Source: Picosynechococcus sp. PCC 7117 (GTDB taxonomy: Bacteria > Cyanobacteriota > Cyanobacteriia > Cyanobacteriales > MRBY01). From it: a stretch of DNA of 64,000 bases. A program made the position numbers and the translations under genes. The DNA is taken from assembly GCF_001693275.1 (NCBI RefSeq), contig NZ_CP016477.1, positions 1,116,001-1,180,000 on the forward strand. The letters are read 5' to 3'. Shown piece after piece: positions 1,596 to 15,603 of this stretch (positions are counted from its first letter, which is position 1; each line of letters opens with the position of its first letter). Below the pieces are notes generated by a model. The model was given only the letters and a program-made list of their open reading frames with translations, did no database searches and was not told the origin of the DNA.

Positions 1596-1994
1596 TAAGA
1601 AATTTTCAACAAAAGATTAAGATTAGACTTTAAGAAACTGTGATTTTCAGGGAAGCTAAATTAGATACAAGCTGGTTTGCTAGAAACTGCCACACTCGAG
1701 GGTAACCATCGCGATCGCTTTAAAGTTATTCAGGGTGTGGATCGTCCCCACGCTGCACCTCAATTTTCTCAAACCCCTTTTCAACGGGTGACAACTGGGT
1801 CGATCTTTTTTTCAATCACCATTGTGATTGCGATCTGCGGCTACATGCTGTTCGGTTGGACGGCCCTAGAATCGTTTTATATGGTCGTGATCACGGTGTT
1901 TGGGGTGGGATATGGAGAAGTCAAACCCCTGGAGACGCTGCCGGAAAAACTGTTTACGATTTTTGTCATCTTAGCGGGGACATCAGCGGCCATC
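1596..1994. repeat. Copy 1 of a ~399-bp direct duplication (K+ channel upstream region plus first 86 codons)
   Basis: This segment aligns without gaps, at a constant offset of 2535 bases, with 4131-4529. It covers the upstream non-coding stretch and the first 86 codons of the channel gene. The non-coding part is clearly more diverged than the coding part, where about nine differences can be counted by eye over 258 bases. Similarity stops abruptly at 1994/1995. The two copies bracket the AT-rich gene at 2068-3840. Confidence 0.93.
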
Positions 1995-2051
1995 ATTGAC
2001 TTCAAAAAAAGATCTGGATATGATTTAAGGCGTTATCATTGTGTAGATTAA
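1737..2051 (+). pseudogene. Truncated 5' copy of the two-TM potassium channel gene
   Basis: Codons 1-86 match the intact channel gene at 4272. They include the first membrane segment, the pore helix, the selectivity filter GVGYGE and the first half of TM2. After 1994 the frame runs on into unrelated sequence for 19 codons and stops, so the NAD-binding RCK domains are absent and no working channel is expected. The start equivalent to the intact gene is GTG here. Unlike the intact copy, the frame is also open upstream to a TTG at 1677, because GAG stands where the intact copy has an in-frame TAG. It could be transcribed, as the upstream region is duplicated too. A short pore peptide acting on the full channel is possible but speculative. 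Confidence 0.85.
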
Positions 2052-2067: not shown

Positions 2068-3840
2068 ATGAATGTAAAAAAACTAAGCCTATATCTTTTC
2101 TCTATCAATTTAGTGACTAGTTTTTTTGCTGTGGCTGCAGCAGATGAAGTCAACGAATCTCTGATAGGAACTTCTACAGATACAAATGCTTTCGACTTAG
2201 AAAATAGTGCTCAGATACTGATTTCAGATATTGTTGAGCAGGAAGATGCCGATACTCAAGAAGAAACAGTCACAGGAAATCGAGTCATTGAATATTCGAC
2301 CAGTCCTTTCGAGGCTAATTTTTTAGAGCCTGCAACTATAGAATCAGCAACTACATTGCCTTCAGGCGTTCTTGATCTTAGTTCTGGATTTATTGTCTAT
2401 CCTACTAATTCAGAATCCACTGGTGTGGGGTTACAAGTATATTATGGTTCTATTGAGTATGGTGTTACGGACAGGTTACAAATAGGTGCGGATGTCTCAT
2501 TTTTTGATGATGTTTTAGGTGATAGATTTAATGGAGAAAGAACTAATCTAACTTTTTCATCTGTAGCACCAAATGTTAAATACAAGCTGATCGAAGAGCC
2601 TTCCTATAGTCTTGGGATTGTTGGTTCACTTGAATGGATACAAGTCCGTTCCGAAAATGGTTTATTCAGTGAACAAGGTACTTCTGCCCGCCAAAAAGAT
2701 AATGTTCTGGCTGGTACCATTCAATTACCAGTGACATATAACATCTCCGAAAATGCTCAGTGGCATGCAGTGGCTGGAGCGACGATTTTCCCTGAGACCG
2801 TTAATGGGGGAGATTTCTACGGTACTTTCTTTAATGTTGGTACAGGGATAACTCTTCAATTAAGCGAAAGATTTGGTTTGCTAGCGGACATTAATTTTCC
2901 GATTGGCTCTTCTGGCGGCAATAGCGTCAATACAGACGGTAGTATTAGCGAAAAAGTGGTTTGGAATGCTGGTTTTAGTTATTTGCATAGTCCGAATCTC
3001 GCCTTGGATTTTTCAGTGACCAACCGGCTAGGCACCACACCAGCAACTAAGTTACTAACCTTTCTACCCAATGGTGATGAAGTAGGAGCTCTATTTAAGC
3101 TTAGATATACACCTGATCTTGCTCAAACCTATCGGGGGAACTTTGGAGATAATCCTTTTCCCCCTATGACGTATCGAGAGAAGCAATTACTATTTGATGG
3201 CATTCTTCTTAGTAGTCCTACCACTGTTCGTAAAGGCATGATTCTTTTGGATGGTGGAATTACTACTGATGGGGACAGTGGTGGCGCACAGCTTAGTTTT
3301 GGTCTCAGTGATACCGCTCAAATAGAATTTCTAGCTTCGCAATTAGCAGATAATGATCAGCCGTTACAAAATAATTTTAAATCTGGTGTTGCGACTAAAC
3401 TTAATTTTTTGAATCAGGCCCAAGGTGATCCCTTTTCCTTAGGTTCGAGAATTGCACTTGTATTTCAAGATGGTACCGATTCCTTTTTAGGAGATTTATC
3501 TTTTGCTTATTCTCCCAATGATACGATTAGTTTTACGTTAAATCCGAAAGTAGCGTTATTTTCTGACGAGAGCATTGTTGGTGCAGGTTTAGGTGTTAAT
3601 TTACAGCTGTCTCCCGGACTACAGCTAATTGGTGAAGTAACTCCTATGCTTAGTGATGATCCCTTTGTTTGGGCAGCTGGTGCGCGTTATTTATTTCCCA
3701 AATCCAATTTTGGTTTAGGAGTTTATGGTACCAACACCTCAGGCAAAGGAAATATTGGTAGCCTAATTCGTCAATCTGATGATGATGTGAGCGTTGGTTT
3801 TAATTTAATGTGGTTATTAGGTGGTGGTAGAAGTGATTAA
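2068..3840 (+). CDS. Predicted outer-membrane beta-barrel-like protein of unknown function
   Basis: The 590-residue product starts with a clear signal peptide: a Lys-Lys N-terminus, a hydrophobic core and an AVAAA cleavage region near residues 21-25. Most of the rest looks like alternating amphipathic strands rich in Gly, Ser, Asn and aromatic residues (for example YGSIEYGVTDRLQIGADVSF), typical of bacterial porin-like barrels. Two similar halves are suggested, one starting near residue 85 and one near residue 385 (VRKGMILLDGGITTDGDSGG). I do not recognise the family. Base composition is more AT-rich than the flanks and GCGATCGC is absent. It sits between the truncated and intact copies of the K+ channel gene, which marks it as imported. 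Export to the outer membrane is inferred from sequence character only. Confidence 0.75.
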   Translation: MNVKKLSLYLFSINLVTSFFAVAAADEVNESLIGTSTDTNAFDLENSAQILISDIVEQEDADTQEETVTGNRVIEYSTSPFEANFLEPATIESATTLPSGVLDLSSGFIVYPTNSESTGVGLQVYYGSIEYGVTDRLQIGADVSFFDDVLGDRFNGERTNLTFSSVAPNVKYKLIEEPSYSLGIVGSLEWIQVRSENGLFSEQGTSARQKDNVLAGTIQLPVTYNISENAQWHAVAGATIFPETVNGGDFYGTFFNVGTGITLQLSERFGLLADINFPIGSSGGNSVNTDGSISEKVVWNAGFSYLHSPNLALDFSVTNRLGTTPATKLLTFLPNGDEVGALFKLRYTPDLAQTYRGNFGDNPFPPMTYREKQLLFDGILLSSPTTVRKGMILLDGGITTDGDSGGAQLSFGLSDTAQIEFLASQLADNDQPLQNNFKSGVATKLNFLNQAQGDPFSLGSRIALVFQDGTDSFLGDLSFAYSPNDTISFTLNPKVALFSDESIVGAGLGVNLQLSPGLQLIGEVTPMLSDDPFVWAAGARYLFPKSNFGLGVYGTNTSGKGNIGSLIRQSDDDVSVGFNLMWLLGGGRSD

Positions 3841-4271: not shown

Positions 4272-4529
4272 ATGGATCGTCCCCACGCTGCACCTCAATT
4301 TTCCCAAACCCCTTTTCAACGGGTAACAACTGGGTCGATCTTTTTTTTAATCACCATTGTGATTGCGATCTGCGGCTACATGCTGTTTGGTTGGACGGCC
4401 CTAGAATCGTTTTATATGGTCGTGATCACGGTGTTTGGGGTGGGATATGGAGAAGTCAAGCCCCTGGAGACGACGCCGGAAAAACTATTTACGATTTTTG
4501 TCATCTTAGCGGGGACATCAGCGGCCATC
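4131..4529. repeat. Copy 2 of the ~399-bp duplication, belonging to the intact K+ channel gene
   Basis: Direct-repeat partner of 1596-1994. It includes the presumed promoter region and the first 86 codons of the intact channel gene. Confidence 0.93.
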
Positions 4530-5336
4530 TATGGGGTGGGAGGATTTGTGCAAATGGTGACGGAGGGAGAGATTAATCGGGCGTTTGAGGCAGAAAGACA
4601 GCGCAAAAGCATTTCCAATTTAGAAAATCACATTATTATTTGTGGCTTTGGCTATATTGGCCAAATTTTAGCCCAAAAACTTGAAGATTCGGGACACGCT
4701 TTTGTGGTGCTCAGTATTGATCCAGAACAATTGGCGATCGCCGAACAGCGGGGTTATCTGACTAAGGAGGGAGATCCGGCAGATGAGCTGATTTTGCAGG
4801 GGTTAGGCATTCGGCGGGCCAAGGCTTTAGCGACGGTGCTTGATAGCGATGCCAGCAATGTATTTATTACTTTGACTGCCCGGGAATTGAACCCAGACTT
4901 AATGATTTTGGCGCGGGGGGAAGTGCCCAGTACCGAAAAAAAGCTCCGGTTAGCAGGGGCAAACCACGTCATTTTACCGGCCAGTGTTAGTGGGGCGCGG
5001 ATGGCTAATTTGATTACGACACCTCCCGCAACGGATTTTTTTAGTCAGTCTTCTCAACAAGAACAACTGAATGATCTTTTGCAACAAATTAATGTGCAGA
5101 TGATCGAGTTGGCGATCGCCCCCCAATCATCCCTCGTGGGGAAAACAGTCCGGGAGCTAGAAATTCGCGGCAAAGGGGCTTTTATTGTGGTGGCTTTACG
5201 GCGATTTCAAGGCGATTTTATCACCCATCCAAGTCCAACTTTAATGTTGACTTCTGGGGATATTTTAGTGGTTTTGGGTCACGAAGAAGACATTCCTAAA
5301 TTTGCCCGGTTTTATCAATTATTTCAACCTAAATAA
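4272..5336 (+). CDS. Two-TM potassium channel with RCK (TrkA-N/TrkA-C) domains
   Basis: The 354-residue protein is built like MthK-type channels: TM1 about 20-40, a pore helix with filter TVFGVGYGE at 53-61, TM2 about 70-94, an NAD(H)-binding RCK/TrkA-N domain starting at HIIICGFGYIGQ (GxGxxG, about 120-131) and a TrkA-C domain from about 275 (SSLVGKTVRELEIRG). It should form a tetrameric K+ channel in the cytoplasmic or thylakoid membrane, gated by ligand binding to the RCK ring. The filter ends in Glu rather than the usual Asp. The ATG at 4272 is supported by an in-frame TAG twelve codons upstream. It is followed after 68 bases by the ammonium transporter gene on the same strand. The exact ligand cannot be read from the sequence. 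Confidence 0.92.
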   Translation: MDRPHAAPQFSQTPFQRVTTGSIFFLITIVIAICGYMLFGWTALESFYMVVITVFGVGYGEVKPLETTPEKLFTIFVILAGTSAAIYGVGGFVQMVTEGEINRAFEAERQRKSISNLENHIIICGFGYIGQILAQKLEDSGHAFVVLSIDPEQLAIAEQRGYLTKEGDPADELILQGLGIRRAKALATVLDSDASNVFITLTARELNPDLMILARGEVPSTEKKLRLAGANHVILPASVSGARMANLITTPPATDFFSQSSQQEQLNDLLQQINVQMIELAIAPQSSLVGKTVRELEIRGKGAFIVVALRRFQGDFITHPSPTLMLTSGDILVVLGHEEDIPKFARFYQLFQPK

Positions 5337-7240: not shown

Positions 7241-10200
7241 GTGGTCATCGATGCTCAGGATCGTTACGAAGCGCGTACCCAACAAATTGCCAGGGAGTTA
7301 ATCGCTGCCACCAGGGAAAAACGGTCATTTTTCTCGAAAATCCAAGACCAGATGCGCCTAGATGATAAATTGCTAGGCTGGGCCATGGAAAATCCCCATT
7401 TGCGGGTGCAACTGTTTCGCTTCATTGATGTGTTGCCAGCCCTCAAGGACAATACGGCGATCGCCCAGCATCTCCAACAGTATCTAGGGGATGAGTCGGT
7501 GGAGTTACCCGGAGCCTTAAAAAAAATCCTCAATTTTACTGAACCCCATTCTCCTCCGGCACAGATCGCGGCCGCAACCATTAGTAAATCCGTGGAAACC
7601 CTCGCGTTTAAATATATTTCGGGGGAAAACGTCAAGCAAGTGCTAAAAACCGTTGAACGTCTGCGTCGAGACAAAATGGCGTTCACCATTGATCTCTTAG
7701 GCGAGGCAGTGATCACCGAATCAGAAGCCCAGAAATATCAGCAAACTTACCTCGATTTAATGGCGGATTTGGCGACAGCGGCAAAACATTGGTCTAAGGT
7801 CGATGCCATTGATGCGGCGGACGGGGAGGATCTCGCCAAGGTGCAAGTATCCGTAAAATTGACAGCGTTTTATTCCCAGTTTGATCCCCTCGATCCAGTG
7901 GGCAGCAAGGAGAATGTGGCGGAACGGGTGCGGCTATTGTTACGCCATGCCCAGGAATTGGGGGTTGCGGTGCACTTTGATATGGAGCATTACGAATATA
8001 AAACCCTCACCCTCCAGATTTTGAAAGATGTATTGCTAGAAGCGGAATTTCGGCACCGCAGTGACATTGGCGTGACTTTACAGGGCTACTTGCGGGATTC
8101 TTACGCCGATTTAGAAAGTTTAATTGAGTGGGCTAAGGAACGGGGTACCCCTGTCACTGTCCGTTTAGTGAAAGGGGCTTACTGGGATCAAGAAACGATT
8201 ACGGCGCTGCAAAACCATTGGGAACAGCCGGTTTTTAACGAAAAGGGCGCGACGGATATTAATTACGAACGCATGACCCGGCTGCTGTTGGAAAATCATC
8301 AATTTCTCTACGGGGCGATCGCCAGCCATAATGTGCGTTCCCAGGCGGTGGCCTGTGCGATTGCAAAAGAACTGAATATTCCCCGGCGTAATTTTGAATG
8401 TCAAGTGCTGTACGGCATGGGCGACCAAATTGCGAAGGCGTTGGTAAAAGAAGGTTATCGGGTGCGGGTGTATTGTCCCTACGGCAGAATTTTGCCGGGC
8501 ATGGCCTACCTAATCCGGCGTTTGTTGGAAAATACCGCTAATAGTTCTTTCCTCCGCCAGAACCTAGAAGAGCGTCCCGTTGAAGAATTAATCGCGCCCC
8601 CCACTGGTGATCTCAAGGCAACGATTCACGACCTTGATAGTAGTCATCTGCAATTTGCCGGGGCTGCCAACGTTGATTATGCCGAGCCAGAACTGCGGGA
8701 TAAGTCCCAATTTGCAATCGCCGAGGTGAAAAAACAGCTTGGCAAACGTTATCTGCCCTACATCAACGGTGAATATGTACAAACCGAAAATTTTGTGGAC
8801 TCGGTGAATCCCTCCCGTTCCACAGAACTCATTGGTAAAGTTGGTCAAATTTCCCTAGAGCAAGCAACGGAGGCGATCGCCGCCGCCAAAGCCGCTTTTC
8901 CCGCCTGGAAGAAAACCCCAGTTTCGGAGCGGGCCAACATTCTCCGCAAAGCTGCCGACATCATGGAAGCCCGTCGCCACGAGTTGAATGCGTGGATTTG
9001 TCTAGAAACGGGCAAAATCCTCAAGGAAGCGGATCCAGAAGTCTCCGAAGCCATTGATTTTTGTCGCTACTACGCCGATGAAATGGAGCGTTTGCACCAG
9101 GGTTATACCGTTAAACCCGATGATTTATCCCAGGTACAGGGCTTCAAAAAATATGATGTTTGTGGCGAAACCAACCGCTACCATTACCAACCGCGCGGCC
9201 TTGCGGTGGTGATTTCTCCGTGGAATTTCCCCTTTGCGATCGCCACAGGGATGACCGTTGCAGCCTTGGTGACAGGCAACTGTACCCTCCTAAAACCCGC
9301 TGAAACCTCCAGCGTGATCGGTGCAAAAATCGCGGAAATCCTCATTGAAGCGGGGATCCCCAAGGGTGTCTTTCAGTTTGTGCCAGGACGTGGCTCCACC
9401 GTAGGCGCAGCGATGGTTAAACATCCCGATGTGCATCTGATTGCGTTTACGGGTTCCCGTGAAGTGGGTTGTAATATCTATGCCAATGCGGCGATCGTCC
9501 AACCGGGCCAAAAGCACTTGAAGCGGGTCATTGCCGAGATGGGCGGCAAGAATGCGATTATCGTCGATGACAGTGCCGACCTCGACCAAGCGGTGACGGG
9601 TGTGCTCCATTCGGCCTTTGGCTATAGCGGTCAGAAATGTTCGGCTTGTTCCCGTGCCATTGTGATGGAAGCAATCCACGATATTTTTGTGGAACGTTTG
9701 GTGGAGGCGGTGAAATCAATCCAGGTCGGTGAAACGGATAATCCGAGCGTCAAGATGGGGCCGGTGATTGACGGGGCAGCCCAAGCGAAAATTAAGGACT
9801 ATATCTTGAAGAGCAAGGAACAATCAAAAGTCGCCTTTGAAACGGCAGTTCCCAACAATGGTTATTATGTGTCCCCAACTATTTTCACTGATGTGCAAGC
9901 GGATCAGGCGATCGCCCAGGAGGAGATTTTTGGGCCAGTATTAGCGGTGATTAAAGTCAGTTCTTTTGATGAAGCCTTAGCGGTTGCCAATGGCACAGAC
10001 TACGCATTGACCGGGGGCATTTATTCTCGGACACCGCAACACATCGAGCGAGCAACGGAGGAATTTGAAGTGGGCAATCTCTATATCAACCGGGGGATTA
10101 CGGGGGCGATCGTGGCCCGTCAACCGTTTGGGGGCTTTAAGATGTCCGGTGTAGGTTCTAAGGCGGGTGGCCCTGACTATCTCCTGCAATTCCTAGAGCC

Positions 10201-10261
10201 ACGCCATGTGACTGAGAACGTCCAGCGTCAAGGCTTTGCGCCCATTGAAGGAGTTGATTAA
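7241..10261 (+). CDS. putA: Bifunctional proline dehydrogenase / L-glutamate gamma-semialdehyde dehydrogenase
   Basis: PutA oxidises proline to pyrroline-5-carboxylate with FAD, then to glutamate with NAD+. The roughly 1006-residue protein has the proline dehydrogenase barrel at about 140-450 ([44 protein letters not shown]) and an aldehyde dehydrogenase domain at about 505-995. The latter shows [20 protein letters not shown], the catalytic Glu in EMGGKNAI (codon about 766) and the catalytic Cys in [11 protein letters not shown] (codon about 800). It lacks the DNA-binding N-terminus of enterobacterial PutA. The last 50 or so codons occur again, in partial copies, at 11182 and 15177, so this 3' end is the boundary of the island that follows. 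TTG at 7232 is a possible alternative start. Confidence 0.96.
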
Positions 10262-10313
10262 TTTCTAAAAAATGGCGATCGCCTTTCTGTAGAAATATGG
10301 GATGGCGATCGTC
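10108..10313. repeat. putA 3'-end repeat, copy A (resident or currently joined copy)
   Basis: The last ~51 codons of putA plus about 50 bases after the stop codon form the reference copy of a three-fold repeat. Copy B shares the coding tail and the post-stop stretch around TGGCGATCGCCTTTCTGTAG. Copy C shares the coding tail only. It marks the left edge of the accessory island. Confidence 0.9.
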
Positions 10314-10322
10314 TCAATTACT

Positions 10323-10742
10323 TTAATCGGGTGGGTGCCATCCTGCCGAAATCCAAGCCTGTCGCACCATGACTGCATAGGGATTATTCAGTTGAAGAGC
10401 AAGCACTGTTGCGCGACCACAAGCAGTTAAACCACGAATCAAAGCACCTTCTCTTTCCCAGATGAAATGTTCTGACCATTTCTGAGTGCGGGGGTTAAAT
10501 AAAGCAACAGTTGTATTTGTCTCTATGTCCATGCCGTGGGTTTTTGTGCCTTTGTAGGAATTGCAGAGACGGCAAGCTAGCCACAAGTTATCTTCTTCGT
10601 CTGAGCCGCCTGCTGCTTTTGGGATAATGTGATCGATTTCTAAGATGCCTAAAACATATTTCTGAAGGCTTTTGCAGTAACCACATTGATTATTGGCGGT
10701 TTCTCTCACCCGTTGGCGCAGCTCTTTTGGGATGTAGCTCAT
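10323..10742 (-). CDS. HNH endonuclease family protein
   Basis: The 139-residue protein has a classic HNH fold signature: CGYC, then LEIDHIIPKAAGGSDEEDNL, then CRLCNSYKG. The two CxxC pairs would bind a structural zinc and the DH pair with the later Asn forms the metal-dependent nuclease centre. About 60 residues follow that may give specificity (FNPRTQKWSEHFIWEREG). Its start overlaps the stop of the ribbon-helix-helix gene by 4 bases (ATGA), so the two are translated together. Such pairs look like a toxin-antitoxin or regulator-nuclease unit; that role is inferred. It is the first gene past the end of putA, on the opposite strand. Confidence 0.88.
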   Translation of the reverse strand: MSYIPKELRQRVRETANNQCGYCKSLQKYVLGILEIDHIIPKAAGGSDEEDNLWLACRLCNSYKGTKTHGMDIETNTTVALFNPRTQKWSEHFIWEREGALIRGLTACGRATVLALQLNNPYAVMVRQAWISAGWHPPD

Positions 10743-11122
10743 TCGCTGAGGGGCTGAATTAATCCACGTTTTACGGCTTCGTTTAATGCTGTCGCTTTAC
10801 GCAGAAGTCCCTCTTGATAAATTTGCATCAAGGTCTGAAGTTCGGAGGAGTCGGGATTGGACAGTTGCCCTGCTTGTTGTAAATCCAGTAGCTGGCTAAG
10901 GCGAGCATCTTGTTCTGGCTCCATCTGTAGCTCGGTTAGACCTAAGATCTCTTCATCGTCTAAGGCTGTAATCGCAGGAGATGCTGTATTGTTGGGAGCA
11001 GGAATGAGAAGCTGAATACTCTCCGCCACGACACTAGACAAGTCACGATTGGCGAGATGGGCAAATTGCTCAACTCTCTGGTAAACGTCATCTGGTAACT
11101 CAATCGTAATGCGAGTGCTCAT
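10739..11122 (-). CDS. Ribbon-helix-helix (CopG-like) protein, likely partner of the HNH nuclease
   Basis: Residues 1-45 of this 127-residue protein fit a ribbon-helix-helix DNA-binding fold: a strand STRITIELPDDVYQRVEQ followed by helices ending in SSVVAESIQLL. The rest is a polar helical tail (LSQLLDLQQAGQLSNPDSSE; LLRKATALNEAVKRGLI) that could bind the partner. It is the first gene of a two-gene unit with the HNH gene, overlapping by ATGA, as antitoxin genes often are. Autoregulation of the unit is likely by analogy but no operator was identified. Confidence 0.78.
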   Translation of the reverse strand: MSTRITIELPDDVYQRVEQFAHLANRDLSSVVAESIQLLIPAPNNTASPAITALDDEEILGLTELQMEPEQDARLSQLLDLQQAGQLSNPDSSELQTLMQIYQEGLLRKATALNEAVKRGLIQPLSE

Positions 11123-11181: not shown

Positions 11182-11359
11182 TTCAAGATGTCTGGTGTGG
11201 GTTCTAAGGCGGGCGGCCCTGACTATCTGCTGCAATTCCTAGAGCGGCGTCATGTGACTGAGAAGGTTCAGCGTCAAGGCTTTGCACCCATCGAAGGCGT
11301 TGATTAATCGATGAAGTAGTGGCGATCACCTTTCTGTAGGAATACTGGGGGGCGATCAT
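11182..11359. repeat. putA 3'-end repeat, copy B
   Basis: Bases 11182-11307 encode the last 41 codons of putA including the stop, with two amino-acid changes (Pro to Arg, Asn to Lys) and several silent ones. About 50 bases after the stop also resemble the sequence following putA. No start codon or upstream putA sequence is present, so this is a relic and not a gene. Confidence 0.92.
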
Positions 11360-11488: not shown

Positions 11489-14422
11489 ATGTTCGTTCTT
11501 ACTCGTGAAGACGCTCTAAAAAGATTGGAGCAAATACAAAAAAAATACGATAGAGACACATTAATTCGCAAAGCTATTAATGAAGCAGAGACAAGGTTAC
11601 TTATTATTGACGAAATTCTATCTTTATTGGGCTGGGCTAAAGATGATTTTTGTCCTGAACATACGGTAAAAAATGTTGGATTTATTGATTATTTAATCAC
11701 AGCAGATAATATTCCCCGCTTTATTGTTGAAGCAAAAAGAGTCGGACAAACATTTATTTACCCCACTAAAAAATTACAAAAGAGTCAATATTCATTAGGT
11801 TACATGCGCACTGCATTTGGTCAATCATTGACTGAAGTCATAACGCAAGCTGAAGGATATTCTCAAGAAAAGGGTGTACCGTTTTCTGTGCTCACAAATG
11901 GTGCAGAATGGATATTGATACAAACCCATAGAACAGAGCAAAAAAAACTAAATGATTTGAATTGCTTTTATTTTGGCAATCTATTAGCCGATTCATCACG
12001 CTTTAATTTACTATGGGAGCTGCTATCAAAGCCATCAGTATTAGACGGCAGTTTAGAAGAAAATTTTTCACAAATTAATATCTCATCTGCCGAATTTGTA
12101 TTAAGTCCTGATTCAAAGCTACCTGAGATTCAATGGAAGATTGATAGAGATATAAACCATAAATACATAAGAGATTTTTATGATTATTTCTTCGGCGAAA
12201 TCATTGACTCTGGCAGAAAAAAGATGCTGAAAAAATGTTTCATCAGCAATTCGAAACTTGATCAGTATCAAAAAGAAATGAAACAAGTATTGCAAGATGC
12301 TAGGCCAACATATATTCCCGATATCGAAGATATAGAACCAGATCATGAAAATGTTCCCTTTCTAAACTCTTATACAGGAGATCAGAAAGGCAAAGTTATT
12401 TTAGTCGTTGGTTCTGTCGGTTGTGGTAAATCAACATTTGTCAATAAGATTCTTGATGAAGAACAAGAGAAAGAACGAGGTTCTAACCAAGAATCAGAAA
12501 ATATTTCTATAATTTTAGATCTGATCAATGAATTTGATGGAACTTCAGATACTATCAATAGATATTTATGGGATTTAATTGATAAGGAATGGAAAGAGAG
12601 AGAACCTGAATCTTACAAGTATAAGACTCTGAGAAAAATCTTTGGTAGAGAACTCAAGCTTCTACATGATGGACCATATGCGACTCTCTTTGAGAAGGAT
12701 CCTGAGTTACTAATGCGAAAAGAAGCAGAAAGATTAGATGACTTATCTTCTTTGCCAGAGACTTTTTTATCCAATAGTTGGAAGTATTATAGACAAACAA
12801 AAAAGAAGGGAATTATTCTTTTTTTGGATAATATTGACAGAACATCAGATAATTATCAAAGATTTGTTTACACGTTCTCTCATAAGATTGCTAGTCGGAC
12901 TGGTGCTACTGTTATTGTAACGATGCGTGAAGGCACTTATTTTAGAGGAAAGAAATTTGGATTTTTGGATGTTCGATCTGATGATATAGTTTATCATTTA
13001 CAAACTCCTAATCGAGTAAAAATTATATCTAAGAGAATTGAGTACGTTAAAAATCTAGAAAGTTACTCAGACTCTGGAGAAAAAGATTATAGGTTATCTA
13101 AATGGAAACAAAGAAAAGATTGGAGCGAGTTCCGAGCAGCTTGTTTGATTTTTGCAGAGACACTCAAAGCGACGTTCTTAACTTCCTGTCACTCATCTCA
13201 AGCATTAGGGCTTTTAAATGCCGTATCTTGGCATAATCTTCGCAGTTTTTTAACTCTTTTGAAAGATTTGCATACTGTATTAGGAAATGATCGAGATGGA
13301 TGGTCTATCAGTTATATCATTTCTGCCTTAACAACAGCCAATATTGATGAAGAGAGTAAATCGATATTACCTAATATATATTTTCCTATATTTAGAGAGT
13401 ACCCTTGTTATTTTTTGAAAGTCAGAATTGTCTTGATGTTGATGTATGGCAAACATCCATCAGAATTGAGAAAAGGAATTTCTCTCAATGAATTACTGAC
13501 ATTTACCAAAGTATATGGCTATCAAGAAAGGTGGAGTAATTTAGCAATTCAAGAAATGGTCAAAGAAAGATTGATTGAATGCATGGAAATTCCTACAGAG
13601 AAAGATTTCACCAAAGACTATCAACTTTCTGACAATCATACGTTTAGAGCTGCTCCTCTTGCAGTTGCAATGGCTGAGAAGATATTTTGCGACAAAATAT
13701 ATCTTCTAGCTGTAGGTAGAGAAATACCTTTTCATAGTGAAAGATTATTTAATCAATATATTGATTTAGTCAAAGATTTTTTTGAAATAGTTCATGATAT
13801 TCCTTTTACGAAAGAAGGAATAAGCCTATTTCTAGAAACAAAAGCATACAAGGTTGTTGCAAGATTTTTGATTGAGCAACTAGAGAAAGAAACACCACCT
13901 CATTCAAAACAATTTCCAACAATCTCTAATGTCGAGAGTCAGCTAGAAGTAATGATTCGAAAACTTCGAAAGATTGCAGAAATGCTAACTACTCGTTTAA
14001 ATATTCCACAAAGCCATCCCGTTAATCAACAAGAATATTTGTTTGATACTGCTGAGTATGAAAATCAGTGTTCTCCCAAATTAATAACAGAAGTTCCACA
14101 AGAGTTCACATATTATAATTCGAATATTTCAAGATTGCCTCCTAAGATTTTTTGGGCTCTTGTTGAGCTAAAAGCAAGGGAGCAAGAATGGGTTACAGGA
14201 GCAGAAATTACTAGAATAATTAATCAGTATTTAGTTGATGACTTAAATCAAGTCGAGTCCACAAATATTTCCAAAGCTTTGCGAGGGAAAGAACTGCGTG
14301 CTATGAAGTGGTTGATTCATAAAAAAGTTGCCGATAAAAAAACCCTTTATAAAGTTTCTGATGATTGGGTTGAGTATTGGTCTAGCTTTTTTCAAGATTC
14401 TCCACCTCCAACACTACTATGA
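11489..14422 (+). CDS. PD-(D/E)XK-like nuclease / P-loop NTPase fusion, candidate anti-phage protein
   Basis: The 977-residue protein combines three parts. Residues about 20-190 resemble the N-terminal nuclease domain of type I restriction HsdR subunits: a helix with Glu34, GFIDYLI with Asp67, then FIVEAKR with Glu81 and Lys83, and later TQAEGYSQ before PFSVLTNGAEW. Residues about 300-560 form a P-loop NTPase with Walker A GSVGCGKST, Walker B GIILFLDNIDRTSD and VIVTMREGTYF after it. The C-terminus (about 885-970) looks like a winged helix (WVTGAEITRIINQYL). I do not recognise a named family. The layout (effector, NTPase, C-terminal module) recalls STAND/AAA-type defence proteins. It is AT-rich, lacks GCGATCGC, and stands alone between putA copy B and a truncated vapC. 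A modest CAGG precedes the ATG. Defence is inferred from domains and context. Confidence 0.8.
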   Translation: MFVLTREDALKRLEQIQKKYDRDTLIRKAINEAETRLLIIDEILSLLGWAKDDFCPEHTVKNVGFIDYLITADNIPRFIVEAKRVGQTFIYPTKKLQKSQYSLGYMRTAFGQSLTEVITQAEGYSQEKGVPFSVLTNGAEWILIQTHRTEQKKLNDLNCFYFGNLLADSSRFNLLWELLSKPSVLDGSLEENFSQINISSAEFVLSPDSKLPEIQWKIDRDINHKYIRDFYDYFFGEIIDSGRKKMLKKCFISNSKLDQYQKEMKQVLQDARPTYIPDIEDIEPDHENVPFLNSYTGDQKGKVILVVGSVGCGKSTFVNKILDEEQEKERGSNQESENISIILDLINEFDGTSDTINRYLWDLIDKEWKEREPESYKYKTLRKIFGRELKLLHDGPYATLFEKDPELLMRKEAERLDDLSSLPETFLSNSWKYYRQTKKKGIILFLDNIDRTSDNYQRFVYTFSHKIASRTGATVIVTMREGTYFRGKKFGFLDVRSDDIVYHLQTPNRVKIISKRIEYVKNLESYSDSGEKDYRLSKWKQRKDWSEFRAACLIFAETLKATFLTSCHSSQALGLLNAVSWHNLRSFLTLLKDLHTVLGNDRDGWSISYIISALTTANIDEESKSILPNIYFPIFREYPCYFLKVRIVLMLMYGKHPSELRKGISLNELLTFTKVYGYQERWSNLAIQEMVKERLIECMEIPTEKDFTKDYQLSDNHTFRAAPLAVAMAEKIFCDKIYLLAVGREIPFHSERLFNQYIDLVKDFFEIVHDIPFTKEGISLFLETKAYKVVARFLIEQLEKETPPHSKQFPTISNVESQLEVMIRKLRKIAEMLTTRLNIPQSHPVNQQEYLFDTAEYENQCSPKLITEVPQEFTYYNSNISRLPPKIFWALVELKAREQEWVTGAEITRIINQYLVDDLNQVESTNISKALRGKELRAMKWLIHKKVADKKTLYKVSDDWVEYWSSFFQDSPPPTLL

Positions 14423-14547
14423 ACAATCATCAGGAAAATCAGAACACCTTCTGTTAATGACGAGATAAGAGATCCGGCAATCGCCTGTTTTTGCGGGTCA
14501 CGAGGATCGTTAACGTAAATAAGAATGTTCGTATCAACCGCGTTCAT
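14392..14547 (-). pseudogene. Truncated VapC-type PIN-domain toxin
   Basis: The first ~37 residues read as the start of a PIN-domain RNase, with the early acidic residue in AVDTNILIYVNDP. After SLTEGVLI (about 14437) the PIN similarity ends and the frame runs into the 3' end of the NTPase gene. Full PIN toxins are about 130-140 residues and carry three further acidic residues, all missing here. Its start overlaps the end of the upstream antitoxin gene by 14 bases, as in intact VapBC operons. Insertion of the NTPase segment appears to have cut it off. Confidence 0.8.
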
Positions 14548-14776
14548 GCAACATCTCCCGCGTAAACCGAGGAGCATCAGAAGGGATAGGAGTTTGTTGC
14601 ATCCGTTCTACAAGTTGCATTAGAAAGTTTTGTCGAGCGGCAAGGTCACTGATTTTAGGAGGAATAACTTGAGAGGATTGCACCAAAAGCTCCACTTCGA
14701 CGCCTTCAGGCAAGTCACAATCTGTCTGAAGGATAAACATACCACTTCGATAAACGGCTTTTATGGCTTGGGACAT
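14534..14776 (-). CDS. AF2212/DUF104-like antitoxin
   Basis: The 80-residue protein starts MSQAIKAVYRSGMFILQTDC and continues DLPEGVEVELLVQ. This is the short strand-rich core typical of AF2212-type (DUF104) antitoxins, followed by a helical toxin-binding tail (FLMQLVERMQQTP). The frame is open further upstream, but an AAGGAG at 14784-14789 fixes the start at 14776. Its partner, a VapC-type PIN toxin, is truncated, so this antitoxin now has no functional toxin next to it. It may still bind DNA or a related toxin elsewhere. Confidence 0.8.
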   Translation of the reverse strand: MSQAIKAVYRSGMFILQTDCDLPEGVEVELLVQSSQVIPPKISDLAARQNFLMQLVERMQQTPIPSDAPRFTREMLHERG

Positions 14777-14783
14777 GGGGAAA

Positions 14784-14789
14784 CTCCTT
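14784..14789 (-). promoter_or_regulatory. Ribosome binding site of the DUF104-like antitoxin
   Basis: AAGGAG on the minus strand stands seven bases before the ATG at 14776 and decides the start against the longer open frame. Confidence 0.75.
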
Positions 14790-14882
14790 CTGTAAGGCAG
14801 GCAACCTTGCGAATAACGACTCAAACTACTGACATAGCTTCATTTTAATCCAGATACTAATATAGATTTACTGAGACTGCTC

Positions 14883-15143: not shown

Positions 15144-15331
15144 ACAAAAATTCAGTTGTGTGGAGAGATAGGGGGATGATCGTGGCCCGTCAACCGTTTG
15201 GGGGTTTCAAGATGTCTGGTGTAGGTTCTAAGGCGGGAGGCCCTGACTATCTCCTGCAATTCCTAGAGCCGCGTCATGTGACGGAAAATGTTCAGCGTCA
15301 AGGCTTTGCTCTTATTGAAGGCGTTGATTAA
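15140..15331 (+). pseudogene. Chimeric frame: lost toxin start fused in frame to the putA tail
   Basis: The ATG overlaps the stop of the antitoxin-like gene by the usual ATGA. The first ~12 codons ([12 protein letters not shown]) are of unknown origin; the next 51 codons are the end of putA in the putA reading frame. The 63-residue product would carry only the C-terminal flap of the aldehyde dehydrogenase domain. It most likely arose when recombination replaced a toxin gene with the putA tail. Expression as a peptide is possible because the upstream gene appears intact. Confidence 0.6.
15177..15331. repeat. putA 3'-end repeat, copy C
   Basis: This repeats the last 51 codons of putA and the stop. 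By eye it differs from copy A by about a dozen silent changes and only one amino-acid change (Pro to Leu near the end). It begins about 10 codons further upstream in putA than copy B does and lacks the shared post-stop sequence. It marks the right edge of the island. Confidence 0.93.
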
Positions 15332-15603
15332 TGACCGGAAGAATGGAGCTAAAGCCCCGTCCTAACTTCAGCAAGTTCAGTCACCTTCTAGGACAGCTTT
15401 CTGGTAAAGAGCATTGGGAGACCCTAAACGAACATGGAGAGATGGTAAGGCCAATTGTGTCGCAACCCAGCTAAGTATCAAGAAATCTTCGACCGTTTAC
15501 GGCGGGAAAGTATGTCAACTTTTTACTGGAGTGTTCAATGGACGGTCATCCATATCGGCAACATTTAAACGTTGTTTTTCCTTGTGAATATGACCATTTT
15601 TGA
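15331..15603 (+). pseudogene. Possible broken small gene
   Basis: A frame starting at an ATG that overlaps the putA copy C stop codon (TAATG) gives 47 codons (MTGRMELKPRPNFSKFSHLL and on) to a TAA at 15472. The same frame then continues open for about 42 more codons (RNLRPFTAGKYVNFLLE and on) to a TGA at 15601. A single nonsense change could split a ~90-residue protein. I do not recognise it, and it may be chance. Confidence 0.3.

What the first reader, a model, noticed from the sequence alone, without database searches (positions are those of the whole stretch)
10323..11122. Overlapping ribbon-helix-helix and HNH pair as a possible toxin-antitoxin-like unit
The two genes overlap by ATGA, the DNA-binding protein comes first, and the second is a small HNH nuclease with a long extra tail. 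This is the order of many antitoxin-toxin operons, but HNH nucleases are unusual as type II toxins.
Basis: partly seen in the sequence, partly recalled or inferred. Interest (0 to 1): 0.5.

Follow-up and report, generated by a model that had tools for sequence, protein, structure and literature searches.

The report
Cyanobacterial HNH nuclease with antidote gene
A cyanobacterium carries a small DNA/RNA-cutting enzyme of the kind used in anti-phage defence, and in nearly every relative examined the gene for it is preceded by a small partner gene that probably acts as its antidote; if right, this is a large, unstudied family of toxin-antitoxin pairs.

Summary
In detail: RHH (10739-11122, -) and HNH (10323-10742, -) overlap by ATGA. 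The interpretation largely holds, with two corrections. (1) The long tail is not an oddity: core plus tail model as a minimal PtuB, the HNH effector of Septu and of PtuAB retrons. The 11 best structural matches all come from Septu/PtuAB-retron complexes; the tail alone hits almost only PtuA/PtuB profiles. No PtuA lies beside it. (2) RHH is not the constant part. Of 138 distinct full-length homologues, 135 have a small gene upstream (exceptions: two contig ends, one truncated HNH). Those partners begin with an RHH, a Phd/RelB-like segment or several unnamed segments, and share a C-terminal helical-hairpin module (131 of 134) that co-varies with the HNH (r = 0.89). Partners without an intact HNH are common (11 of 30 unselected); a nearly intact HNH behind a broken partner was seen once. 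Zinc and HNH residues are essentially invariant. Best reading: a type II toxin-antitoxin-like family in which the module restrains a PtuB-like nuclease, with interchangeable N-termini. Toxicity, neutralisation and target are inferred, not shown. The papers searched do not describe it. The pair lies in a putA 3'-end insertion hot spot.

The parts
10739..11122 (-). RHH protein, 127 aa; predicted antitoxin, first gene of the pair
   Evidence: ORF; weak RHH_5/DUF6364 hits; AF2 model (pLDDT 76.5, pTM 0.47) with helices 11-23 and 28-39, low confidence 41-48, then helices 56-63, 69-83, 89-118; residues 1-49 match RHH domains
10775..10915 (-). C-terminal helical-hairpin module of the RHH protein (residues 70-116), shared by partners with other N-termini
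   Evidence: profile match at G000:C1:1126775-1126915, E 1.8e-9; module alignment A3; found in 131 of 134 partners
10323..10742 (-). HNH nuclease, 139 aa; predicted toxin, second gene, PtuB-like over its full length
   Evidence: PF01844 9.5e-13; PADLOC PtuB 2.7e-13 over residues 3-131; 11 best structural matches all from Septu/PtuAB-retron complexes, Z 9.3-6.5
10539..10727 (-). HNH core (about residues 6-68) with CxxC...DH...N...CxxCN
   Evidence: AF2 confidence is low in part of it (residues 31-50, block means 57 and 54)
10326..10535 (-). the 'long extra tail' (residues 70-139): PtuB-like C-terminal domain
   Evidence: AF2 block means 83-96 over residues 71-139; tail alone hits only PtuA/PtuB models in PADLOC (best 1.9e-4, a PtuA-named model; best PtuB-named 0.0028)
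10739..10742 (-). ATGA stop/start overlap of the two genes
10099..10262 (+). 3' end of putA, first copy of the 164-bp direct repeat that brackets the pair
11182..11308 (+). second, partial copy of the putA 3' end, on the far side of the pair (90% identical over 127 bp; 75% over the full 164 bp from 11145)
15169..15332 (+). third copy of the putA 3' end (90%), closing a second cassette

Best explanation
The pair is a type II toxin-antitoxin-like unit. The toxin is a minimal PtuB-like HNH nuclease (HNH core plus PtuB C-terminal domain) without a PtuA ATPase beside it. The partner is an antitoxin-like protein whose C-terminal helical hairpin binds and restrains the nuclease, and whose N-terminus (here an RHH) binds DNA and probably represses the operon. 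The first gene is made first and the ATGA overlap couples translation, so toxin emerges next to antitoxin. When the partner is lost or degraded (loss of the element, phage takeover, stress) the nuclease is freed and cuts nucleic acid (a tRNA or DNA), stopping growth. SHOWN: gene order, nearly obligatory pairing, module sharing, co-variation, conserved active site, PtuB-like fold of the model, patchy multi-copy plasmid and chromosome distribution. INFERRED: toxicity, inhibition by the module, autoregulation, target, trigger.
For: 135 of 138 distinct full-length HNHs have the upstream small gene. 131 of 134 partners share the module; among 7,057 ORFs of the same loci only 23 other hits, all reading as further module proteins. 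Module and HNH distances correlate at r = 0.891 over 131 pairs, against at most 0.62 in 2,000 within-type shuffles. Partners lacking an intact HNH: 11 of 30 unselected loci (8 solo, 3 HNH remnants), while full-length HNHs without a partner are nearly absent. Zinc and HNH residues kept. N-terminal swap at about 70% HNH identity: L015 against RHH partners. PtuB-like fold and tail. Known PtuAB pairs act on tRNA-Tyr with growth arrest (PMC11555353, PMC13096335, passages) or on DNA (as cited in PMC11555353). Up to 10 copies per genome, 85 of 386 cyanobacterial genomes; 34 plasmid records.
Against: No toxicity, binding or neutralisation data exist here. No conserved palindrome was seen upstream of the first gene in 19 loci, so autoregulation is unsupported. 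The largest partner class ('FKF', 51 of 134) has no recognisable DNA-binding domain. In the retron-Eco7 study neither PtuA nor PtuB alone arrested growth, so a lone PtuB-like protein might need an activator; the partner could be that. One HNH (L391) is open from an internal start behind a truncated 48-aa partner. Three of 134 partners miss the module profile (L123, L216, L217), and the profile was grown on the same partners, so the 131 is partly circular. Foldseek itself gave no match at E <= 0.001.
Confidence: 0.7

Rival explanations
1. The partner is an activating or targeting subunit, as PtuA is for PtuB: the two proteins together form a nuclease (defence or restriction) and the N-terminal segment chooses the substrate or senses the signal.
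For: PtuB works with PtuA; in retron-Eco7 PtuA or PtuB alone did not arrest growth while both together did (PMC11555353 passages). N-terminal variety would suit different sensors. Tight co-variation fits any obligate complex.
Against: Partners without an intact HNH are common and the reverse is nearly absent; an activator would predict loss in either direction. Partners are 76-156 aa, and in the ten types scanned no ATPase family reached its cut-off (one AAA_24 hit at E 0.16).
Confidence: 0.2
2. A nuclease-immunity pair of another kind: the HNH is a plasmid or island maintenance nuclease with a dedicated immunity protein that has no regulatory role, as proposed for pMF1.20/pMF1.19 of Myxococcus.
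For: Found on 34 plasmid records and in the putA cassette hot spot; many partners lack any known DNA-binding domain.
Against: 41 of 134 partners carry RHH-like and 9 Phd-like N-termini by pattern, typical of autoregulated antitoxins. In practice this is hard to separate from type II TA.
Confidence: 0.07
3. Ordinary, unrelated neighbours: a CopG-like regulator next to a stray HNH (homing-type) gene.
For: HNH genes are common and often stray (recalled); the RHH hit is weak by sequence.
Against: Pairing in 135 of 138 homologues and the co-variation.
Confidence: 0.02

Closest known systems
PtuB of Septu and of PtuAB retrons (Eco7/Ec78, Ec83, I-A)
   Same: HNH core plus C-terminal domain: 121-128 of 139 residues superpose at 3.0-3.4 A, Z 9.3-6.5 (that the matched chains are the PtuB subunits is read from entry titles and chain lengths); sequence profiles agree over core and tail.
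   Different: No PtuA ATPase and no retron seen next to it; the neighbour is a 76-156 aa protein with a hairpin module; the HNH is shorter (139 aa against 205-258 in the matched chains).
RHH-type type II toxin-antitoxins (e.g. AtaRT, KacTA, VapBC, CcdAB)
   Same: Two small adjacent or overlapping genes, RHH protein first, linker, then helical C-terminus; patchy, multi-copy, plasmid and chromosome.
   Different: The usual toxins there are GNAT, PIN, CcdB/MazF or RelE folds (recalled; PMC2701414 tables for some); of the TA papers looked at, none names an HNH toxin of this kind (term counts and passages).
NetFlax / Panacea networks
   Same: One half constant, the other combined with different domains.
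   Different: Panacea is one antitoxin domain with many toxins; here one toxin family and one hairpin module carry many N-termini. NetFlax node D51 is PtuB-like but paired with an AAA ATPase (PMC10440598, passage).
pMF1.20/pMF1.19 nuclease and immune protein (Myxococcus fulvus)
   Same: A nuclease neutralised by the product of a paired gene, proposed for plasmid maintenance (abstract passage).
   Different: Described as a new kind of nuclease; sequence not compared here.
YnzC / UPF0291 (DUF896)
   Same: Solved helical hairpin matching the module by profile (E 6.4e-4) and by fold (52 residues, 1.5 A, Z 6.9).
   Different: Such Z values are common for helical pairs, so kinship is not established; its genomic partners were not looked at.

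Membership tests
Type II toxin-antitoxin system | two small genes in one operon, antitoxin first | tested here: met
   order, strand and spacing; co-transcription itself not tested
Type II toxin-antitoxin system | pair kept together across genomes and mobile elements | tested here: met
   135 of 138 distinct HNHs; 2 of 2 plasmid loci opened, of 34 records; 2 of 2 viral-contig loci with core and tail, one of them (L235) with the HNH broken by a stop
Type II toxin-antitoxin system | antitoxin = DNA-binding domain plus toxin-binding segment | tested here: inconclusive
   RHH plus hairpin in the window; many family partners show no known DNA-binding domain; binding not modelled
Type II toxin-antitoxin system | toxin inhibits growth and antitoxin neutralises it by contact | not testable with these tools
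Type II toxin-antitoxin system | autoregulation at an operator | tested here: inconclusive
   no conserved inverted repeat seen in 19 upstream regions
PtuB nuclease family | HNH core with intact catalytic and zinc residues | tested here: met
PtuB nuclease family | PtuB C-terminal domain after the HNH | tested here: met
   tail alone, six family members: 5 of 6 hit PtuB- or PtuA-named models, best 3.3e-7; one no hit; window tail 1.9e-4; structural matches span 1-139
Septu (PtuAB) system | ptuA ATPase encoded beside ptuB | tested here: not met
   five neighbouring ORFs scanned: RHH protein, a KAP-type NTPase on the other strand that hits no PtuA model, and three small ORFs; the other neighbour is putA. 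In homologues the immediate upstream gene is the small partner; genes downstream of the homologues were not checked for ptuA
PtuAB retron (type I-A) | reverse transcriptase and msr/msd RNA beside the effectors | tested here: inconclusive
   no reverse transcriptase among the neighbouring ORFs scanned against Pfam or as read; no RNA-family search was run

The most novel reading that the evidence does not exclude
A PtuB nuclease freed from PtuA: in cyanobacteria, and here and there elsewhere (Chloroflexota, Planctomycetota, viral contigs), a small hairpin module replaces the ATPase or retron as the lock on a PtuB-like nuclease, giving a large type II toxin-antitoxin superfamily with plug-in sensor/repressor N-termini. 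It could be the source, or a derivative, of the effector of Septu and of PtuAB retrons, and its toxin may be a tRNase.
Probability: 0.35. Interest if true: 0.75.

Novelty: new variant of a known kind. Interest (0 to 1): 0.6.

Why it matters
If true, it adds an HNH/PtuB-type toxin to type II TA systems, suggests a function for many 'HNH endonuclease + hypothetical protein' pairs in cyanobacteria (up to 10 matches per genome), and gives a stripped-down system in which to ask how PtuB is held off and what it cuts. That question is open for Septu and retrons, where DNA and tRNA-Tyr have both been reported as targets (PMC11555353, passages).

Tried and rejected
Homing or stray HNH: rejected because of the pairing. 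Septu proper: rejected for lack of ptuA beside it; a retron is unlikely (no RT seen) but no RNA-family search was run. RHH as the constant part: rejected. Natural single-chain fusions of module and HNH: none among the module hits. Another recurrent toxin after the solo modules: none stood out; a few repeated neighbours (rsmH-like, DUF433-like, UPF0175-like) look like positional conservation, read by eye. Operator search: nothing conserved. Viral origin: 0 of 50,697 phage records with a match over 80% of the HNH, 6 partial. Viral contigs: of 89 relatives found 80 were kept, and two loci match core and tail, L234 intact and L235 broken by an in-frame stop; of four others checked, none matched the whole profile. 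MAFFT alignments A6 and A7 for a fused model were poor and not used. HNH counts per genome are lower bounds (at most 10 candidates scored per genome), so I did not compare them with module counts. In one search, seven further weak, core-only HNH matches (L400-L406) were not opened. Literature: searches listed no paper on this pair; the library holds open-licence papers only, and searches listed 15 of 68 and 25 of 65. Makarova 2009 (PMC2701414), the Synechocystis TA paper (PMC4963859) and the Panacea paper (PMC8832971) contain no 'HNH' in the main text held (term counts and passages seen, not whole texts). PMC6293099 (cyanophage with a TA pair; passages) concerns a GNAT/HipB-like pair and an intein HNH, not this one. 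The MaOC1 paper (PMC7935541; passages) describes a ParDE-like pair between direct repeats, a parallel for the repeats here, not for the genes.

Full report
THE OBSERVATION. The two ORFs are as described: on the minus strand, a 127-aa protein (10739-11122) followed by a 139-aa HNH protein (10323-10742), overlapping by ATGA. The HNH is secure (PF01844, E 9.5e-13); the RHH is only suggested by sequence (E 5e-4 to 9e-4, below cut-off). In the AlphaFold2 model of the 127-aa protein (pLDDT 76.5, pTM 0.47, 21 sequences), residues 1-49 match solved RHH domains such as PutA, CopASO, AtaR, CopG and Arc (Z about 5-6). The window lies in a 3.43-Mb genome in 6 contigs. HIP1-like gcgatcgc motifs and the relatives suggest a Picosynechococcus-like cyanobacterium; that name is my recall, from no call.

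THE PAIR IS A UNIT. A profile of 12 HNH proteins found matches (E <= 1e-15) in 85 of 386 cyanobacterial genomes and 52 of 142 genera, up to 10 per genome; of the three genomes of the window's genus in that set, its own included, one (G081) had none (at most 10 candidates per genome were scored, so counts are lower bounds). With L002, the loci, those and 100 fetched stretches, 225 ORFs matched at E < 1e-3. I kept the 146 with score > 100 and 115-230 aa and dropped 8 with an identical C-terminal stretch, leaving 138. 131 have a same-strand ORF of 60-260 aa ending -75 to +60 nt from the HNH start. Of the other seven, three have the partner a little outside that range (L103, L118, L182). One (L122) has it further upstream behind an ORF that I read as a transposase. 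Two lie at contig ends (L177, L209), and one HNH is N-terminally truncated without a partner (L186). Of the 134 pairs tallied (the 131 plus L103, L118 and L182), 128 lie within -35 to +22 nt and 47 at exactly -4. As a harder test I opened eight genomes: four with an HNH hit but no module hit, and four with only weaker HNH hits. Seven full-length or nearly full-length HNH loci came out: six have a partner (one with only a weak module score, 0.049) and one (L391) has a truncated 48-aa partner. One locus was only an HNH fragment (L397) and one a diverged protein with no partner (L398); seven weak core-only matches (L400-L406) were not opened.

THE PARTNER IS MODULAR. By simple patterns the 134 partners fall into 'FKF' 51, RHH 41, other 22, 'FRAS' 11 and Phd/YefM-like 9; a few of the 'other' look RHH- or Phd-like by eye. 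One 39-position profile of the C-terminal segment, grown iteratively on these partners (hence partly circular), finds 131 of 134 (full-sequence E < 0.01); L123, L216 and L217 are missed. Among all 7,057 ORFs of the same loci it adds only 23 hits, each of which reads as another such module protein. The segment aligns as Q.R...LL.K.....LT..E..EL..., and is a helical hairpin in the window protein's model (alignment A3; AF2 helices 69-83 and 89-118). Its nearest solved sequence and fold is YnzC, of uncertain meaning. None of ten partners scanned, chosen to cover the types, reaches a Pfam or NCBIfam cut-off. L015 shows a different N-terminus on an HNH about 70% identical to those with RHH partners; L197 and its kin look like L181 without the RHH (the second is my reading of the sequences).

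CO-VARIATION AND ASYMMETRY. Pairwise distances of module and HNH correlate at r = 0.891 over 131 pairs (three without a module hit dropped); the maximum of 2,000 full shuffles is 0.08 and of 2,000 shuffles within partner type 0.62. The module profile run on 117 genomes matched 38; 30 of these gave a locus, one per genome, not chosen for an HNH: 19 have an HNH next to them, 3 an HNH remnant and 8 none. In 40 further loci chosen because no listed HNH was adjacent, 6 still had one, 6 a remnant and 28 none. So the partner often survives without the nuclease while the nuclease hardly ever lacks the partner. This is what is expected of an antidote and a poison; it is inference, not proof.

THE TOXIN IS PtuB-LIKE. 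The AF2 model of the window HNH has pLDDT 81 and pTM 0.78; the tail is confident (block means 83-96 over residues 71-139), part of the core is not (57 and 54 over 31-50). Foldseek ranks a retron I-A HNH first (E 0.029, probability 0.99, TM 0.60), with no match at E <= 0.001. The VIA second look at 208 Foldseek chains puts 11 entries, all Septu or PtuAB-retron complexes (Eco7/Ec78, Ec83, I-A), at Z 9.3-6.5 with 121-128 of 139 residues aligned, then falls to Z 4.6 over 78 residues of the first 90; that the matched chains are the PtuB subunits is read from titles and lengths. By sequence, the best PADLOC PtuB profile matches residues 3-131 (E 2.7e-13). With the HNH core removed, 5 of 6 family tails hit PtuA- or PtuB-named profiles (best 3.3e-7; the window's own tail 1.9e-4), one tail had no hit, and the only other family listed was a type IV restriction enzyme at E 0.043. 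The PADLOC 'PtuA' models concerned match in their first 211 positions, so they probably contain a PtuB-like stretch (inference). Residues C20, C23, H38, N52, C60 and N61 are invariant in 134 aligned homologues and C57 is kept in 133. No PtuA model was hit by the five neighbouring ORFs scanned.

HOW IT MOST LIKELY WORKS. Partner and nuclease are co-translated; the hairpin holds the PtuB-like nuclease inactive; the RHH dimer may repress the promoter (no conserved operator was seen in 19 upstream regions). Loss of the partner frees the nuclease. Published PtuAB cases give two possible targets: retron-Eco7 PtuAB depletes tRNA-Tyr and arrests growth, and Septu EcB88 cuts tRNA-Tyr in the variable loop, its ATPase and HNH motifs both being needed for defence; another Septu was reported to attack DNA (PMC11555353 and PMC13096335, passages). 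In the retron-Eco7 study neither PtuA nor PtuB alone arrested growth, which is the best argument for the rival view that the small partner activates the nuclease.

DISTRIBUTION AND CONTEXT. 34 of 72,556 plasmid records match, all with cyanobacterial names; the HNH of the viral contig L234 as query also retrieved 34. No phage record has a match over 80% of the HNH. Two viral contigs match core and tail, both with a module gene upstream: L234 intact, L235 with the HNH broken by an in-frame stop. An Anaerolineae MAG (L024, Phd-like partner) and a Pirellulaceae MAG (L027, RHH partner, HNH frame only 85 aa) extend it beyond cyanobacteria. The same genome holds a second copy (40% identical HNH, 90-aa 'FRAS' partner). 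In the window the pair sits between the putA 3' end and a partial, about 90% identical copy of it, and a third copy closes the next cassette. In G209 the pair is on a 3.3-kb contig with a putA-tail-like stretch next to it.

NOVELTY AND SCORE. The kind (two-gene antitoxin-toxin) is known and the nuclease family (PtuB) is known; the combination, the hairpin module with exchangeable N-termini and the scale appear undescribed in the papers I could search. I call it a new variant of a known kind.

Noticed in passing
window 10099-10262, 11182-11308, 15169-15332; L314, L318, L319: The 3' end of putA is repeated as 127-164 bp direct copies (about 90% identical) around two cassettes. In the same-genus genomes read, the region after putA holds quite different genes; G209 has a 936-bp putA 3' copy and G388 a 39-bp one. 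The varying copy lengths, and no integrase noticed by eye, suggest insertion by homologous/illegitimate recombination rather than a fixed att site.
   Followed up: partly
window 1677-2051, 2068-3840, 4272-5336: A truncated copy of the K+-channel-like gene at 4272-5336 precedes a lower-GC gene (2068-3840): the same 'insert flanked by a partial gene copy' pattern as at putA (by eye).
   Followed up: no
window 11489-14422: 977-aa low-GC protein with KAP-type NTPase hit and a weak HSDR_N-like N-terminus, weak PADLOC PDC-M54B hit; looks like a defence gene.
   Followed up: no
window 14392-14824: AF2212-like antitoxin followed by a short ORF with only a marginal PIN/VapC hit (E 0.09), possibly a truncated VapC.
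   Followed up: no
L314 5194-6295 (G209): In the putA hot spot of a same-genus genome, a protein that reads like a nucleic-acid deaminase followed by an Imm1-like protein (by eye, no search run).
   Followed up: no
L359, L360, L362: Solo module proteins of the FKF kind stand just before an rsmH-like gene in three genomes: perhaps an old, positionally conserved orphan partner (reading by eye).
   Followed up: no
L209, L357, L391: A similar short segment (SVILTLLLLLK) stands before the HNH in L209 and after the partner in L357, possibly a small mobile repeat that breaks the pair; L391 has a gap at the same place.
   Followed up: no
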